A stretch of 64,000 bases of DNA from Ignavibacteria bacterium (GTDB lineage Bacteria; Bacteroidota; Ignavibacteria; Ch128b), in NCBI GenBank assembly GCA_013177855.1, contig JABLYA010000001.1, forward strand, positions 667,231 to 731,230. Reading direction: 5' to 3'. The notes under the pieces are model-generated. The model did not search any database. It was given only the letters and a program-made list of their open reading frames with translations, and was not told the origin of the DNA. Below, piece by piece: positions 51,034 through 61,025 of this stretch. Position 1 is the first letter of the stretch. The number at the start of each line of letters is the position of its first letter. A program made the translations under genes and the position numbers.

Positions 51034-54000
51034 CTATTTAACAACAGCAACTTTAATGATCTTATAATCACTTTTACTTTGTGATTTTGCTTCGATACGA
51101 GCGAAATAAATTCCGCTTTGAATATTTGCAACATTCCATTTGATATCGGTTTCAATTCCAGCTAAGGCATAAGAATTTATTTCATCAACAAATTCTCCAT
51201 TCAAATCATAAATCTTTATTTTAATCTTTGCATCTTCTGAAACATAAACTCTGAAATTTGTTTCGTTATCATAAACTGGGTTAGGCCAATTATAAACTTT
51301 AGACTTCGGCAGAAATTCATCTCTGTAAAATGCACCCGCTGGAATTTCAGATACATTATGATGATACAAATTGTTTGAATTCAAAGTCCATTTAATAATT
51401 TTAGGTTCATCAGCAATTTGTACCAGTTGAACAAAACCACTATCATTTCCTGTCAAATAAAATGTTTTGTTGAAATTATAAATAAGACTTGAACCACTTG
51501 ACAGATAACCAATTGAATAAGTGATTAATGCATCCATTAAATTTTCGGAAGGCTTTTTCCCATTATAACAGATTAATCTACCATCTTCTGTTGAAACCAG
51601 AATATCGTTAACACCATCATTATTGTAATCAATTAAATTCAAATTGCCAATGAATTTTGTCCCGAAAGGCGGATAGATTGGAAAATTTTCAGCCACAGCG
51701 CCAGATTTGTTGAAAGCTAAAATTTTGTCTTTTGTGTTTACAAAAATGTAATTCGTTTCATCTGGTTTTAGATTTCCAGCAGCTATTGTAAAGCTTGAAT
51801 CAGTCAAGTCAATTTTGAAATGAGCGATTATCCCTTTTTCATTTAATGTCTCAACAAAACCAGACTTATCAAAAATAACAGCAATCTCTTTATCAGCTGG
51901 AGTTTGAGCAAGTGAATTATCCCAGATTAAAACCATTTCAACCAGATCATTAAGCGAGTGTTCAACTTTAGTATTGCCAAAGTAAACATACTTAGAAGTC
52001 AGAGTAATAGTTCTATAACCATTATATGCTGACTTAATTGCTTTGTCAGTTACAATTAATCCAGTTGGAGCAAAAGTATTTTGTGGAGATTTAAATAGAT
52101 ATTGCTCGCCATTCTCCCTAAGAATTTCAATCACGAAATTTGATAGTAATTGCGATACTGGGTAGGTAATTAAATTTTTTACATTGTTTGTAAACGGAAG
52201 TTTAAATTGTTCTACCCATATTGTATCCGAAGAGATATAAACCAAACTAAGCAAAAGTTCGTTTGATGAATTCGATTCGACAAAAGAGTAAATATTTATT
52301 CCATTCAAAAAATTGATAAAAAGTATGTTAGTTTGAACTGAATTGGAAAAAATCTGTTTAGATTTTGATAAGAGATCGTAACTAAAAAATTCATTGCCAG
52401 ATTTAATAAAAATTTTGTTCGTATCAATTTCATTTCTATGTATAAATTCAGTTCTGAGAGATTGAGCAATTCGTTCGTTGACAATTGGTTTTATTTTCTC
52501 GTTACCAAAACTTACACTAAAAGTCATTTGATTATTTAGTTCGGAGAAGTTGTAAATTTTAATATAAGTCGGTGTTCCATTGTTTGATAGAGTTCTCGGC
52601 TTAGTTTCATCTGAAAATTCATTCTTATAAAATTTTGATGGATTATTCTTGAACCAGAAATCAACTGAATCGCCTTCGCCAACAACTACATCACCGAAAA
52701 TAGTAGTGAACTCATTACCTATATCCTGAATTCCATCGGCTTCAATTAATTTGATTCCTCGCAATTTCGGATTTGCATTTATCGAATTATCAGCGAAATT
52801 TTCAGCTATGATTTTTTCATCAATATGCCAGATCAAAATTCCATTACCTGGAGTTGCCCAATCAAATTCATCAACATCAATCACTACTCCGTCTACTGTA
52901 TCAACATAGTAAGAACTAAAATTTCTAAAATCTTTGAAGAAATTATACTCAACAAGATTAACCCCGATCTGAGATTTGATTTTTATTCCATCATTTAAAA
53001 CATCTTTCTGACGATTTTCAATTAAGTAATACTCTCTTGAATTGATTGGAATTTTGTAAACTGTTTTTGAATTATTAACTGATGCCAGGCGAGCAAAAAC
53101 TTCTAAATCCAAAGTATCCTTTGAAATTTCAATTGGTTCAACTAAACCAAGAAAATATTTTTCCCAGGCTGATGGCTCTGGTGGGAAAAGTCCTGCATAC
53201 GCAAACATTGCCTGACCATCCATCAAGCCAAAACGACCAATAGCCGTTTTACCAGTTTTAGTATCAAACAAATCTGGAAGTCCAAGAAAGCTGCCAAAAC
53301 TTGCAGCAAGCAATCCATTAATGCTCAATTCAAGCAAAGCTTTGCCAGTTAAAGTTTGAATTTCCCGACTTTCAGTCTCGGGTAAAATCATAGAGTTTAG
53401 AACATATTTAGGTGGATTGCCAATTTTTACACCTTGATAATTTGCACCAAAGAAATTCTTCAATGTAGTTGGACTTAAGTAAACAGATGGAATATCTTTT
53501 TCAAGTCCGAATGTCTCTGGTATTACAATATCTCTTCCCACTCCAGCGTGAAAAATTGTAAAGACATCGTACTTGGTAAAATCCTGATCTGGATAAAGTG
53601 AATCGACTTTTCGCCAGACATCTTCGAATAATATTCCCAATCGTGATAGATCATTCGATTTCGGTGGTGAATAATAACTCATTACATTTGGAAGCGTAAC
53701 AATTCTATCTAATACTTCATACTGAATTATAATTTTACCATCAGAGATTTTTTGATAGTAATTTTTTAAGAACTCAAGGTGTGATTTGAAATAATTTCTA
53801 TCATGTGGCAGCGGATCAATTATACTTTTTCCGTAATCCTTTGAATAATGGGAACCAAATTTTCCATTCCCGTAAGTCGCTGCATCTTGATCAACTGCAA
53901 AATCAACCATCACAGCAAGCAAACGAAAAGTATCAACCGATGTCGTTCGGTAAATTTGACTTTCACTCGCACTAAACGGATTTAAATTATGTGGTAATCT

Positions 54001-54078
54001 CAATTCAATTTTAGCAGATTGAGCAAAAAGAATTGTCGATAAAGTCAAAAACAGGATTAAAAATTTTTCAAGTTTCAT
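51034..54078 (-). CDS. M6-like secreted protein with lost zinc motif and T9SS-type C-terminus
   Basis: 1014 residues with signal peptide (1-19). The fold resembles immune-inhibitor-A/M6 peptidases: FRLLAVMVDFAVDQD, YFKSHLEFLKNYYQKISDGK, FTIFHAGVGRD, then SFLGLPDLFDTKTGKTAIGR and FGLMDGQ. The expected HExGH directly before LGLPD reads A-S-F-G-S (residues 259-263), so all three motif residues that bind zinc or catalyse are absent. A propeller-like middle and a sorting-domain-like end (VYNWPNPVYDNETNFRVYVS to YKIIKVAVVK) follow. It lies between PorV and the gluzincin/barrel gene. Confidence 0.85.
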   Translation of the reverse strand: MKLEKFLILFLTLSTILFAQSAKIELRLPHNLNPFSASESQIYRTTSVDTFRLLAVMVDFAVDQDAATYGNGKFGSHYSKDYGKSIIDPLPHDRNYFKSHLEFLKNYYQKISDGKIIIQYEVLDRIVTLPNVMSYYSPPKSNDLSRLGILFEDVWRKVDSLYPDQDFTKYDVFTIFHAGVGRDIVIPETFGLEKDIPSVYLSPTTLKNFFGANYQGVKIGNPPKYVLNSMILPETESREIQTLTGKALLELSINGLLAASFGSFLGLPDLFDTKTGKTAIGRFGLMDGQAMFAYAGLFPPEPSAWEKYFLGLVEPIEISKDTLDLEVFARLASVNNSKTVYKIPINSREYYLIENRQKDVLNDGIKIKSQIGVNLVEYNFFKDFRNFSSYYVDTVDGVVIDVDEFDWATPGNGILIWHIDEKIIAENFADNSINANPKLRGIKLIEADGIQDIGNEFTTIFGDVVVGEGDSVDFWFKNNPSKFYKNEFSDETKPRTLSNNGTPTYIKIYNFSELNNQMTFSVSFGNEKIKPIVNERIAQSLRTEFIHRNEIDTNKIFIKSGNEFFSYDLLSKSKQIFSNSVQTNILFINFLNGINIYSFVESNSSNELLLSLVYISSDTIWVEQFKLPFTNNVKNLITYPVSQLLSNFVIEILRENGEQYLFKSPQNTFAPTGLIVTDKAIKSAYNGYRTITLTSKYVYFGNTKVEHSLNDLVEMVLIWDNSLAQTPADKEIAVIFDKSGFVETLNEKGIIAHFKIDLTDSSFTIAAGNLKPDETNYIFVNTKDKILAFNKSGAVAENFPIYPPFGTKFIGNLNLIDYNNDGVNDILVSTEDGRLICYNGKKPSENLMDALITYSIGYLSSGSSLIYNFNKTFYLTGNDSGFVQLVQIADEPKIIKWTLNSNNLYHHNVSEIPAGAFYRDEFLPKSKVYNWPNPVYDNETNFRVYVSEDAKIKIKIYDLNGEFVDEINSYALAGIETDIKWNVANIQSGIYFARIEAKSQSKSDYKIIKVAVVK

Positions 54079-55535: not shown

Positions 55536-58500
55536 TTATCTCATTATTGCTAATTTACCTAAGGCTTCGCTGCTTTTTGTATTGTCGAGCGAATTAATGA
55601 TTATTTTATACAAATATACGCCATTACCGAGATAGTCTCCTTCAGCATCTTTACCATCCCAGTAAACTTTTACAAACTTTTCTAAGACATTTTGTTTTTC
55701 AATTTTATGAATAAGCCTGCCGCTTACTGAATAAATTTTGATCGTTACATTAACAGGTTGATCATAACTATGCTGGAATGTGAAATATGTCGAATTATTT
55801 ACTGGATTCGGATAGTTGTAAACATTTTTAATTATGAGTTGATTATCACCAACGACTTCAAAAAACATTTCTGTTTCATTTTTGTTGTTGAAAACATCCC
55901 AAGCTGAAACTCTAATTTTATTCTTCCCAAGAGGTAAATCACTCAAACGATAGCGAACTTCACCTTTCTGATTTCCAGCATCCAGATCACCCTGAAAATA
56001 TTCATTTAATTTAATTGAATTGGTTTCGTTATCATTAATTACAGCTTCAATATTATGACCAATGCCTAAGCCAGTTGTGTTGATGCCTGTCTCATCTTCA
56101 AGTTTAACAATTAGTAATGGCGACCGAGAAACTAAAGTCGCTCCAAATGAAAGATCATTATCAAAATAAATTTTAATATCAGGACCTTTTACATCAGTAA
56201 TAGTAACGCTGTCAGCAGATACAACTTTGATATTTTCAGTGTAAGCAATACCATCTGTACTGTTATTAAAGAAATACACAGAGACTTTTCCATTATTGCC
56301 TTCATAAGAAAGATCTTTTGGTACAACAAATTCAGTTCTAAAAATTCCATTCTTTATTGAAACTCTACCTTTATAAATTATTCCACCAGATAATTCTATG
56401 CCCTTCCCTGGACCTGTCCAGCCTGGCCATTCTGGCACTTCTTGATATCTCTTTGAATCATAAACAGTAACAAGAGCTTCGCCATTGAAATTTGAATTAA
56501 TGGTTCCATCTGAATTTCTGATAGTCCCCGTGATCGAGGCTCTATTCAAAGCCTTAATCTCTACAATACCTGATGTAGAAGAATTGTTAATTGAATCAAC
56601 TAAACCGAGATCGCTCGGTGCAAGCAAATAGAGGCTGGGATCACCAAATAGATTATATTTTTGATCGTTATCAGAAACTTTAAATCGCTTAACTTGAAAA
56701 TATGCTTCACCAATTGAAGGTTGAGTTGAGTTTGTTCTGCGATACGAAAACAAAGCTTGGAAAAGAGCGTAATTGATAGCTGCATTCTCGCTCGACCATA
56801 CAGCTCGAGATGCAGTAAATCCTGATATGATTCCACCGTCAGCTTTTGTCAGAAGTAGTTCCATCGAACTCTGATTGGCGGGTTTATCATAATCACCAAA
56901 ATCGCAGGTTGCCGCCGAAAGGAACGGAAGTCTGTTTGCATTTTTTAATTGTGGAACTGTCACAGTTTTTTCAAATACATATTCGTGAGTCCAGACTTCT
57001 GGATTTCCATGCCCAATGAAATTAATTACAAGAGTTCCATCATTAAAAGTATTTATAATTTCTCGATTGACATCAGGCTTTCTTCTTCCTCCAGCTGTTT
57101 CCACAGTTGGATATTGAATCAAATATATTTTCTTTGTTTCAAATGCTGGAGGAATAGTTTCTTTGGCAAGAATTTCTGATTGATTGGTGTGTATATGTCC
57201 ATCATCACCTTTTGTAGTTTTACCATCATCAGCAACTAAGGTTATTAAATTTCTCCAAAGACCAAAATCCTTATTATTCTCATAGCGAATTATTTTATCA
57301 ACAGCAGCTTTTGCTTCTTCAATTGACTGGATATGAATTCTTCCAACAGCTATATCAACAAATAAATCATTGCCTACAACTCTGCCGAAGAAATCATCTG
57401 TTGGATAACTATAAAGCAAGAATAAGCTTTCTTCCGTCTCATAAACTGGAATAAAGTTTTTACCATAACCTTCTATGTTTCTGTAATCATAATTTCCATC
57501 ACCAAAAAGCAAAACATATTTTGGTTTGATTGTCCAGAATGTATAAGCATGTTTGATAAAATTTCTTATTGCTGAGACATCGAGTAATCCACCACTGAAT
57601 TCGTTGTAAATCTCTTCGACATTGACAACGACTGTTGACAATGGTTTCTTCGATCTTGATTCTTTGTGAGACTTCAATCGGTTTGCTTCAGCTAAAAATT
57701 CTTTTGGTGAAATTATGATTAATTCTCCGCCTGGATTAATTCCCCTTAAATTTTGATTTGCTATTTTAATTATTTCAGATGGAAGTAGATAACCATTTTG
57801 ACCAACAGCAAAATATTTTGAAGGAGAATTTCCATCCTCAATTGCTCTAAACTTTATCTGCATCCCGCTTATTTCTGCATTTGAAATCAACTTGACATCG
57901 TTAAATTTTGAAACATCAAAAACTTTTATATCACTATTGGAAAAATTGCTCACCAAATATTCATAAACTCCAGACTTCAGCGGTGAGAAGAAACTTATCC
58001 TATCACTTTCAGCTGATAAGTATCTTGGATAAAGAATTTCAAAATAATCAATATAACCTGAAGAGATTGCATCAGTTACATTATATGTTAACTTTAAGAC
58101 ACTCCTTGAGTCAGACAAATTTGATGAGTGTGTGAAAACACCAAAATTTGAGTAAGCATAAAGTCCAATACCATCTGCAAGATTTACTGGGTTCATTGAA
58201 ATTGAACCGATTCTATCGTTCCCTTCATCAACAAAAAATGTTGTGACTCTATCGGATCTTGCAACTACACCTATTCGATAGGTAATAGTTTTATCAGGTA
58301 CCAATCCAGGCAATCGATTTACATAAACCCTTGATTTAGTTCTATCATTAAATTCATCACCAAACCATCTTCTGCCTGTCCCGGCAAGATTTTTTTTGAA
58401 TTCACGATACAGAATATAACCCGTAGTTGTTGTTACGATAGAGTCAGGATTATTAGAAACCGAAACTTTACTCGACATTCGTTTACCAATTGCATTGCCG

Positions 58501-59528
58501 AATGTCAACCACACATAATTCACATCACTATAATAATGAAAGTAATGCCCAATCGTTTTTGAACTTGATTTATATTCCCAGCCTTTGACTGATGGTGCGT
58601 AGAAAATTATGTAATCGGATGGATCAAATTTTCCATCTTCTTCACCAACAACTAAAATTGCATTTTCAATCAAATCAACATTTAAATAATCTTCAGGATT
58701 TTCACTTAAAGTTTTTCCACCATTTCCAAAAATTTGAATTGTTCTTGGATCAACATTCGCTAAATCAATTCCTTTTGATTTAAGAAAATTATAATCGAGT
58801 TTATAAATACCCTCTTCTGTAATTTTAATTCTATACCAATTACCATTACTCAATCTGCTATTTGTGACTTTCTGCATCGAAAAGTCTTTTGAATGATAAA
58901 CCCAGTTCTTCGCCTGATTTTCATTAATTATCCCTCGATAAACAATATCATCATTATCGCGGATTTTGAATGAAACTATAGGTGTTCCGAAATTAATCTG
59001 GATCTTAATTTTCTTATAAATTCTTACTGTATTGGAACCAATCTGTTGATAAGGATAAACTCTGAGATTTCCAACAATTAAATCACGAACGATCCCAATT
59101 TCTCCCCATTTTACTAACTCAAATTCCTGGCTTTTAATATTTTCAGAAATTAAGTCAGAATATTCTGGGATTAAAATTCCATTTTCTCTAATTAATGTCG
59201 GAACAGGTTTTAGAGTTACTCCCTGTATATCTTCGAATTCAACATCTAAAATTGTAAAAGTATTTCCAGCCATTGAAGGCAGGGCAATTGGAATATTTTT
59301 ATATCGATAATCTGGTGAACCAACATTAATAAACTCAGGAGCTGATGCATCTTCGAAAAGTGGTAGTATTCTGTTTAAATCATCACGATAATGATTTTCA
59401 GAGAGATATTTGGGTATAAACTCGAAAGTTAATCCCTTATCTGTCGAAAAGATTAAATTAAGATCCTGAGCATTGATGAAGCTCGCATAAAAAATAAATG
59501 AAATAAAAATTGCAAAGAATTTTTTCAT
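55536..59528 (-). CDS. porU: T9SS sortase PorU (C25 gingipain family)
   Basis: 1330 residues from ATG 59528, chosen because the signal peptide MKKFFAIFISFIFYASFINA starts there. An in-frame ATG at 59600 with a strong AAGGAG site gives 24 extra residues (see the leader entries). The C25 caspase-like domain (about 600-1000) has His in VINFIGHGNPEVWTHEYVF and Cys in LPFLSAATCDFGDYDKPA. PorU removes the cargo's C-terminal signal and attaches the protein to the cell surface. The C-terminus is a FlgD-like Ig domain (NYPNPVNNSTYFTF to GKLAIMR), normal for PorU. porV follows 18 bases later. Confidence 0.94.
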   Translation of the reverse strand: MKKFFAIFISFIFYASFINAQDLNLIFSTDKGLTFEFIPKYLSENHYRDDLNRILPLFEDASAPEFINVGSPDYRYKNIPIALPSMAGNTFTILDVEFEDIQGVTLKPVPTLIRENGILIPEYSDLISENIKSQEFELVKWGEIGIVRDLIVGNLRVYPYQQIGSNTVRIYKKIKIQINFGTPIVSFKIRDNDDIVYRGIINENQAKNWVYHSKDFSMQKVTNSRLSNGNWYRIKITEEGIYKLDYNFLKSKGIDLANVDPRTIQIFGNGGKTLSENPEDYLNVDLIENAILVVGEEDGKFDPSDYIIFYAPSVKGWEYKSSSKTIGHYFHYYSDVNYVWLTFGNAIGKRMSSKVSVSNNPDSIVTTTTGYILYREFKKNLAGTGRRWFGDEFNDRTKSRVYVNRLPGLVPDKTITYRIGVVARSDRVTTFFVDEGNDRIGSISMNPVNLADGIGLYAYSNFGVFTHSSNLSDSRSVLKLTYNVTDAISSGYIDYFEILYPRYLSAESDRISFFSPLKSGVYEYLVSNFSNSDIKVFDVSKFNDVKLISNAEISGMQIKFRAIEDGNSPSKYFAVGQNGYLLPSEIIKIANQNLRGINPGGELIIISPKEFLAEANRLKSHKESRSKKPLSTVVVNVEEIYNEFSGGLLDVSAIRNFIKHAYTFWTIKPKYVLLFGDGNYDYRNIEGYGKNFIPVYETEESLFLLYSYPTDDFFGRVVGNDLFVDIAVGRIHIQSIEEAKAAVDKIIRYENNKDFGLWRNLITLVADDGKTTKGDDGHIHTNQSEILAKETIPPAFETKKIYLIQYPTVETAGGRRKPDVNREIINTFNDGTLVINFIGHGNPEVWTHEYVFEKTVTVPQLKNANRLPFLSAATCDFGDYDKPANQSSMELLLTKADGGIISGFTASRAVWSSENAAINYALFQALFSYRRTNSTQPSIGEAYFQVKRFKVSDNDQKYNLFGDPSLYLLAPSDLGLVDSINNSSTSGIVEIKALNRASITGTIRNSDGTINSNFNGEALVTVYDSKRYQEVPEWPGWTGPGKGIELSGGIIYKGRVSIKNGIFRTEFVVPKDLSYEGNNGKVSVYFFNNSTDGIAYTENIKVVSADSVTITDVKGPDIKIYFDNDLSFGATLVSRSPLLIVKLEDETGINTTGLGIGHNIEAVINDNETNSIKLNEYFQGDLDAGNQKGEVRYRLSDLPLGKNKIRVSAWDVFNNKNETEMFFEVVGDNQLIIKNVYNYPNPVNNSTYFTFQHSYDQPVNVTIKIYSVSGRLIHKIEKQNVLEKFVKVYWDGKDAEGDYLGNGVYLYKIIINSLDNTKSSEALGKLAIMR

Positions 59529-59530
59529 AA

Positions 59531-59568
59531 TAAAAAACCGAGTGTTTATTTGTGAATAAATACTCGGT
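59531..59568 (-). terminator. intrinsic terminator directly before the porU signal-peptide start
   Basis: ACCGAGTATTTATT, loop CACA, AATAAACACTCGGT (13 of 14 pairs), then six T. The T run ends within 5 bases of ATG 59528. It would stop transcripts that enter from upstream unless translation from the ATG at 59600 prevents folding. Confidence 0.75.
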
Positions 59569-59572
59569 AAAC

Positions 59573-59643
59573 CTATATAGATTCCTTTACAATTTTTCAT
59601 TTTGTTCTCCTTAGTAAATTAAATTGTAAAGAAATCTATATAG
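59573..59643 (-). promoter_or_regulatory. porU leader: 23-bp inverted repeat around a Shine-Dalgarno and ATG
   Basis: Arms 59573-59595 and 59621-59643 are complementary over 23 bases with one mismatch (CTATATAGATTCCTTTACAA versus the complement with T). The 25-base loop holds AAGGAG and the ATG at 59600. On the transcript this presents an initiation site in a hairpin loop, followed after five bases by the terminator. Only the sequence is seen; regulation is inferred. Confidence 0.7.
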
Positions 59644-59696
59644 TCAACTCCTTCTTTTTGTTGCAAATATAACTGATATAAAAAACACTTGTCAAG

Positions 59697-60951: not shown

Positions 60952-61025
60952 TAGCGCGTGCGGGATTCGAACCCGCGATCTCCGCCTTGAGAGGGCGGCG
61001 TCCTAAACCACTAGACGAACGCGCC
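60952..61025 (-). tRNA. tRNA-Glu (anticodon CTC)
   Basis: 74 bases on the minus strand. Acceptor GGCGCGT/ACGCGCT with a G-T pair at 1:72, D arm TCGTCTAGTGGTTTAGGAC, anticodon stem CCGCC/GGCGG with loop CTCTCAA (anticodon CTC, codon GAG), T arm GCGGG-TTCGAAT-CCCGC, and discriminator A. CCA is not encoded. A 1:72 G-U pair also occurs in other Bacteroidota Glu tRNAs. Confidence 0.95.

What the first reader, a model, noticed from the sequence alone, without database searches (positions are those of the whole stretch)
59526..59643. porU leader: terminator and hairpin-presented start upstream of the T9SS sortase
Seen: a strong AAGGAG-ATG (59600) in the loop of a 23-bp inverted repeat, an in-frame 24-codon leader running through a clear intrinsic terminator (14-bp stem, six T), then the porU signal-peptide ATG at 59528. 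Inference: continuous translation from 59600 would keep the terminator open and permit porU-porV transcription, whereas a stalled or absent ribosome would end it. A leader that puts the sortase pair under translation-coupled attenuation is not something I know described.
Basis: partly seen in the sequence, partly recalled or inferred. Interest (0 to 1): 0.62.

Follow-up and report, generated by a model that had tools for sequence, protein, structure and literature searches.

The report
Conserved terminator leader controlling T9SS sortase
The stretch just before the secretion-system sortase gene porU is the local version of a previously uncatalogued RNA leader, found across the bacterial class Ignavibacteria, that folds into a long hairpin followed by a transcription stop signal directly in front of porU, so transcription must get past that stop for porU to be expressed.

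Summary
On the minus strand at 59695-59528 there is a Bacteroidota-type promoter, a 23-bp hairpin (P1) with AAGGAG-ATG in its loop, and a terminator (T) whose U-tract ends 3 nt before the porU ATG. It is far beyond chance (fold z -7.9) and it is the only such arrangement among 34 genes of the window.

Promoter, P1, T and the T-to-ATG spacing are kept in all six family genomes held. The reading frame is not: SD+ATG in frame occurs only in the window's genus, and two species carry an in-frame stop.

The main new result: this is the local form of a class-wide porU leader. It has a GGAG-N-UAUMGA-N-UUUGUUAAAGGUU 5' arm paired as P1, then CCGAAUG...CAUUCGG-U6 close before porU. A covariance model finds it in 86 of 294 class genomes, about one copy each, almost always at porU; five second copies all precede a PorV/PorQ-family gene. 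Covariation is strong (96 double-change cells against 32 shuffled). Rfam has no match.

Regulated transcription attenuation is likely. Translation coupling as the general mechanism is not supported (ORFs across T: 13/29, expected 12.8), and no conserved antiterminator was found. The 5' arm is more conserved than its partner and persists without P1 or T in other families, pointing to a trans-acting factor. Signal unknown.

The parts
59664..59695 (-). promoter TTGACA-N18-TATATTTG of the porU leader
   Evidence: 11 of 12 consensus matches; invariant TTGACA and TATATTTG with an 18-nt spacer in all six family genomes
59648..59653 (-). AAGGAG, conserved purine motif just before P1 (leader 5' element)
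   Evidence: AGGA(G) kept in all six family genomes; GGA(G) in leaders of other families
59626..59640 (-). TATAGATTTCTTTAC, the family's form of the class-wide 5' arm element UAUMGA-N-UUUG-YUA
   Evidence: alignment with other families, e.g. GGAGAAAAACTATATAGAGTTTGTTTAC in Melioribacteraceae-type leaders
59573..59643 (-). P1 hairpin; arms 59643-59621 and 59595-59573, loop 59620-59596
   Evidence: fold z -7.5; conserved in six genomes with one compensatory pair (A-U to U-A in G003/G005)
59598..59613 (-). AAGGAGAACAAAATG in the P1 loop: SD and ATG of the 24-codon in-frame extension of porU (window's genus only)
   Evidence: SD+ATG in frame in G000, G001, G002 only
59529..59568 (-). intrinsic terminator T (stem 59568-59537, U-tract 59536-59532) abutting the porU start
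   Evidence: fold z -3.8; conserved in six genomes with a compensatory U-A to C-G pair in G003; same element in other families
55536..59528 (-). porU, type IX secretion sortase, from the signal-peptide ATG
   Evidence: NF033707 998 bits
54321..55517 (-). porV, directly downstream of porU
   Evidence: NF033710 260.6 bits, above its cut-off

Best explanation
The region is the family-specific form of a class-wide cis-acting leader RNA that attenuates transcription of porU (and porV). Transcription starts near 59660. By default the nascent RNA folds into P1 and T, and RNA polymerase stops at T just before the porU start codon. Expression of porU requires read-through of T. The most conserved part is the 5' arm of P1 with the GGAG before it, kept in sequence even where P1 and T are lost. 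I infer that a trans-acting factor recognises this 5' element as the RNA leaves the polymerase and lets it pass T, or tunes how often it does. Shown: promoter, the two hairpins, their covariation, adjacency to porU, recurrence at PorV/PorQ-family genes. Inferred: termination in vivo, regulation, and a factor binding the 5' arm.
For: All six family genomes keep promoter, P1, T and the same T-to-ATG spacing. A T-like terminator lies near the porU start in families f1, f3, f5, f6, f8, f12, f13, f17, f18 and f23. Model R2 built from 20 leaders of 7 families finds 86/294 class genomes and 80/98 genomes of one order; in a phylum sample of 296 genomes all 15 hits are in this class. In 35 of 38 loci PorU follows directly; of the rest, L160 and L162 stand before a second porU-like ORF and L196 before a PorV/PorQ-family gene. 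Five second copies all precede PorV/PorQ-family genes; in G013 the leader precedes a flippase-like gene followed by porU. Covariation: 96 cells changed on both sides against 32 shuffled, 0/500; slid controls at most 20. 5' arm 21.4 bits against 14.9 for the 3' arm. 5' element regex in 36 of 63 named loci against 0.35 in shuffles. R2 recognises all six family leaders at the right place, 18-28 bits.
Against: No transcript data exist. Membership of the window's family in the class-wide model is marginal (E 0.001-0.08 in 19 kb) and rests mainly on T and the 5' element; its P1 pairs differently from the UUGUUAAAGG form. No conserved antiterminator pairing was found, so the switch is not visible in the RNA. 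Families f10 and f22 have the 5' element without T, so T is not essential everywhere. A constitutively leaky terminator would look the same.
Confidence: 0.58

Rival explanations
1. Translation-coupled attenuation: ribosomes starting at 59600 in the P1 loop translate through T and keep it open; without translation T stops transcription.
For: SD+ATG in frame in all three genomes of the genus, with indels in multiples of three. An ATG in the same register in 5 of 6 family genomes; in G003/G005 the ORF ends inside T, where a ribosome could still block it. In f16 the best porU start assigned also lies upstream of a terminator-like stem.
Against: Frame and SD are not conserved in the family. Class-wide ORFs over T are at chance, 13/29 against 12.8. 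In most families the porU frame is closed between T and ATG or shortly upstream.
Confidence: 0.15
2. The leader is mainly a small RNA gene (about 130 nt, own promoter and terminator) and porU is expressed only by constitutive leakage past T.
For: Compact promoter-hairpin-terminator anatomy; single copy in most genomes; strong sequence conservation of the 5' arm.
Against: The unit stays attached to porU or PorV/PorQ-family starts across families and moves with the operon start. T abuts the ATG. Families f10 and f22 keep the 5' element without T, so no separate small RNA would be made there.
Confidence: 0.17
3. Nus-type antitermination: the P1 3' arm (ACCUUURACRA) is a boxA-like site hidden by P1; when free, NusB-S10 let polymerase pass T.
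For: rrn leaders of the class have GUUCUUUGAMA, close to CCUUUGACA/CCUUUAACA in the 3' arm.
Against: The 3' arm is the less conserved arm. f3 and f13 arms (CCUUUGUCA, CCUUUUUCA, CCGCUAGCA) depart from it. f10 and f22 have no such site.
Confidence: 0.07
4. The 5' element is a DNA operator just downstream of the promoter and the hairpins are secondary.
For: Distance from the -7 element is short; in f10/f22 the element is not in a hairpin.
Against: Covariation supports pairing of P1 and T as RNA.
Confidence: 0.03

Closest known systems
terminator-bearing cis-regulatory leaders in general (transcription attenuators)
   Same: promoter, sensor hairpin, intrinsic terminator immediately before the gene, conserved across species
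   Different: no recognisable aptamer, leader peptide, T-box or antiterminator; not in Rfam 15 at the gathering score, and only chance-level matches besides tRNAs at E<=5 in 20 leader loci
ribosome-mediated attenuation (leader-peptide type, e.g. trp, erm, mgtC leaders)
   Same: in the window's genus a start codon with SD precedes a terminator
   Different: no conserved ORF, no regulatory codons, no alternative pairing; the frame fuses to porU in the genus and is closed elsewhere
processive antitermination RNAs (HK022 put, EAR of eps operons; from memory)
   Same: a promoter-proximal RNA element upstream of one or two terminators
   Different: sequence and fold not compared here; no test with polymerase
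PorXY-SigP control of T9SS genes in Porphyromonas gingivalis (PMC4800418, PMC7712824)
   Same: controls T9SS component genes
   Different: two-component system and ECF sigma factor, not a leader RNA

Membership tests
transcription attenuator leader | promoter upstream of an intrinsic terminator that lies before the coding region | tested here: met
transcription attenuator leader | structure conserved with compensatory changes | tested here: met
transcription attenuator leader | mutually exclusive antiterminator (defining only for the RNA-switch subtype) | tested here: not met
   no conserved upstream partner for the T 5' arm
transcription attenuator leader | condition-dependent termination in vivo | not testable with these tools
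   needs term-seq or reporters
ribosome-mediated attenuation | conserved translated leader ORF overlapping the switch | tested here: not met
   SD and frame only in the genus; class-wide at chance
Rfam-listed riboswitch or leader families | match to a covariance model | tested here: not met
class-wide porU leader (this work, model R2) | GGA(G), UAUMGA, UUGUUAAAGG arm, paired P1, CCGAA-type T with U-tract at porU | tested here: inconclusive
   the window leader has GGAG, UAUAGA, P1, T and position, but not the UUGUUAAAGG arm; R2 28 bits, E 0.001 in 19 kb
boxA/Nus antitermination | boxA sequence conserved as in rrn | tested here: not met
   resembles GUUCUUUGAMA but varies between families

The most novel reading that the evidence does not exclude
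Ignavibacteria control the T9SS sortase PorU and a PorV/PorQ-family protein through a shared RNA regulon: an unknown factor binds the conserved 5' element (GGAG-UAUMGA-UUUGUUAAAGG) of the nascent leader and carries polymerase past one or two terminators, a new antitermination system tied to protein secretion.
Probability: 0.3. Interest if true: 0.78.

Novelty: new variant of a known kind. Interest (0 to 1): 0.58.

Why it matters
Known T9SS control is by PorXY-SigP in Porphyromonas; I found no RNA leader for T9SS in Rfam or in the papers searched. A class-wide conserved leader before the sortase gene, reused before PorV/PorQ-family genes, gives a concrete and testable handle on how Ignavibacteria set the level of surface-protein attachment, and possibly a new antitermination factor. 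It also adds a candidate RNA family defined by covariation.

Tried and rejected
Conserved antiterminator pairing with the T 5' arm: no consistent partner by duplex scoring or by folding truncated transcripts. Pairing of the P1 3' arm with the porU signal-peptide codons in G000 (third fold): judged chance complementarity of low-complexity codons, since G002 lacks it on inspection. Conserved ORF from NTG ACT AT(A/T) TA(G/A) at the foot of P1: present in all six family genomes, but AGGA lies only 1-2 nt upstream and it is not kept class-wide. AUA/AUC start codon after the 5' GGAG: frames differ between families, so not coding. Mobile or repeated element: single place in the genome. boxA as the driver: weak. 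R2 in the window's own genome by whole-genome search: nothing at E<=10, which fits a diverged member but means that a second copy in this genome cannot be excluded. f2 and f20: no leader found before porU or before the upstream flippase-like gene apart from one weak hit, 16.6 bits. Pattern scans for the 5' element elsewhere: the non-porU hits L298, L302 and L303 lay in or beside unrelated genes.

Full report
WHAT IS THERE. On the minus strand upstream of porU (55536-59528) the sequence shows TTGACA-N18-TATATTTG (59695-59664), AAGGAG (59653-59648), a 23-pair hairpin P1 (59643-59573), AAGGAG-N7-ATG inside its loop (ATG at 59600), an intrinsic terminator T (59568-59532) and the porU signal-peptide ATG at 59528. 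The leader folds far more stably than shuffles: -39.2 against -16.2 kcal/mol, z -7.9. P1 and T are each better than shuffled. Among 34 gene starts of the window the porU terminator has the top score, 26 against 17 for the next (own script). PorU and PorV are clear family members. The leader is a single-copy sequence in the genome. Named relatives are Ignavibacteria metagenome-assembled genomes.

FAMILY LEVEL. All six genomes of the family (three genera) keep the leader in front of porU. TTGACA, TATATTTG, the 18-nt spacer, TGACTAT, the P1 foot and T with its U-tract and RTT-ATG spacing are conserved. Compensatory changes occur in P1 (A-U to U-A) and T (U-A to C-G). The reading frame behaves differently. 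The three species of the genus have SD+ATG in frame with porU, with indels in multiples of three. G004 has only GTG without SD. G003 and G005 have an in-frame TAA 16 codons before porU, and their loop ATG opens a 16-codon ORF that ends within T. So the structure is conserved, while the fusion frame is not.

CLASS LEVEL. Upstream regions of PorU from 23 other families revealed that the leader is not confined to this family. In f3, f5, f6, f8, f12, f13, f17, f18 and f23 a terminator lies close before porU, usually of the type CCGAAUG...CAUUCGG-UUUUUU (f6 uses ACCAUUUAUU...AAUAAAUGGU). It is preceded in most of these families by GGA(G)-N-UAUMGA-N-UUUGUUAAAGGUU, whose 3' partner AACCUUURAC closes a hairpin with a highly variable apical part. 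f8 has two terminators in tandem. Counting pairs on 20 leaders of 7 families: 9 pairs and 31 cells with changes on both sides, 0/500 shuffles as high for cells or covariation score. On 49 leaders: 96 such cells against 32 in shuffles and at most 20 with slid partners. The second alignment was fitted to the structure and leans towards it; the first was made by MAFFT without structure. Covariance model R2 finds the leader in 86 of 294 class genomes, one place each with few exceptions, in 80 of 98 genomes of one order, and within a phylum sample of 296 genomes only in this class. E-values from the short calibration are rough.

WHICH GENES. tblastn with PorU shows PorU directly after the leader in 35 of 38 fetched loci. 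L160 and L162 stand before a second porU-like ORF next to a full porU, in one case followed by a PorV-like ORF. Five genomes have a second copy (G081, G292, G180, G176, G533); each precedes a PorV/PorQ-family protein (NF033709 above cut-off, best match NF052325 below its cut-off). In G013 the leader stands before a flippase-like gene that is followed by porU. The leader thus stays with the start of the porU operon and with PorV/PorQ-family genes. Two weak hits in f22 precede other genes.

IS THE WINDOW A MEMBER? R2 recognises the leader in all six family genomes at exactly the right place, 18-28 bits, E 0.001-0.08 in 19 kb; three of the four family loci fetched by name stand out in 454 kb of PorU loci. 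The match rests on GGAG, UAUAGA and T; the UUGUUAAAGG arm is absent and P1 pairs otherwise. The family's 5' arm GGAGUUGACUAUAUAGAUUUCUUUAC is close to that of Melioribacteraceae-type leaders (GGAGAAAAACUAUAUAGAGUUUGUUUAC), and a regex for this element is found in 36 of 63 named loci against 0.35 in shuffles; the regex was written after seeing several of these families, so the contrast is optimistic. I call the window leader a diverged member, likely but not proven.

MECHANISM. Shown: promoter, hairpins, terminator position, conservation, gene association. Termination in vivo and regulation are inferred. Translation coupling was tested in two ways. ORFs starting with ATG between the P1 5' arm and T and running over T occur in 13 of 29 leaders against 12.8 expected after shuffling that region. 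The porU frame is mostly closed within a few to a few dozen codons upstream of porU in the other families. So it is not the conserved function, though the family shows 5 of 6 leaders with an ATG in one register, and SD in three. Alternative pairing of the T 5' arm was searched and not found consistently. The 5' arm carries 21.4 bits over 14 columns against 14.9 for its partner, with the partner drifting through G-U pairs, and the 5' element persists in f10 and f22 where neither P1 nor T is seen. This points to recognition of the 5' arm itself, most simply by a trans-acting factor that acts on termination. A boxA-like reading of the 3' arm is suggestive against the rrn GUUCUUUGAMA but conflicts with which arm is conserved and with deviant families.

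KNOWN OR NEW. Rfam 15 has no match to the leader at gathering threshold in the window and only chance matches in 20 leader loci apart from tRNAs. Paper searches for PorU or T9SS with attenuation, leader, riboswitch or untranslated region gave nothing on this; T9SS control in P. gingivalis is by PorXY-SigP (PMC4800418, PMC7712824, abstracts). The library holds only open-licence papers. As a kind, it is a terminator leader; as a family and in its T9SS association it appears new.

Noticed in passing
window 60952-61025 (-): tRNA gene upstream of the HD-domain and endonuclease III-like genes.
   Followed up: no
window 51034-54078 (-): Gene matching NF052323, T9SS-dependent M6-like inactivated metalloprotease, two genes downstream of porU.
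   Followed up: no
G123, G046, G054, G146; L160, L162: Two porU copies in some f5, f6 and f8 genomes; in f8 loci L160 and L162 a second leader stands before a second porU-like ORF.
   Followed up: partly
L209 and L210 (G288:C26:33430-33532, G250:C52:20159-20266): Weak leader-like hairpins in f22 with UUGUUAAAAGUUU before a membrane-protein-like ORF followed by a YceI-like ORF, not T9SS genes.
   Followed up: partly
L198, L205, L206, L207, L208: In f2, f9 and f20 a flippase-like (polysaccharide export) gene directly precedes porU, suggesting a sortase/surface-polysaccharide operon.
   Followed up: partly
L291-L293 upstream of 16S rRNA: rrn leader boxA of the class reads GUUCUUUGAAA/GACA.
   Followed up: partly
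window 59647-59636 (-): In all six family genomes NTG ACT AT(A/T) TA(G/A), a 3-codon ORF, sits at the foot of P1 with AGGA 1-2 nt upstream.
   Followed up: partly
terminators of G001-G005: The T stem has a conserved G-G mismatch at its sixth pair in five family genomes; G000 instead has an A-C mismatch at the eighth.
   Followed up: no
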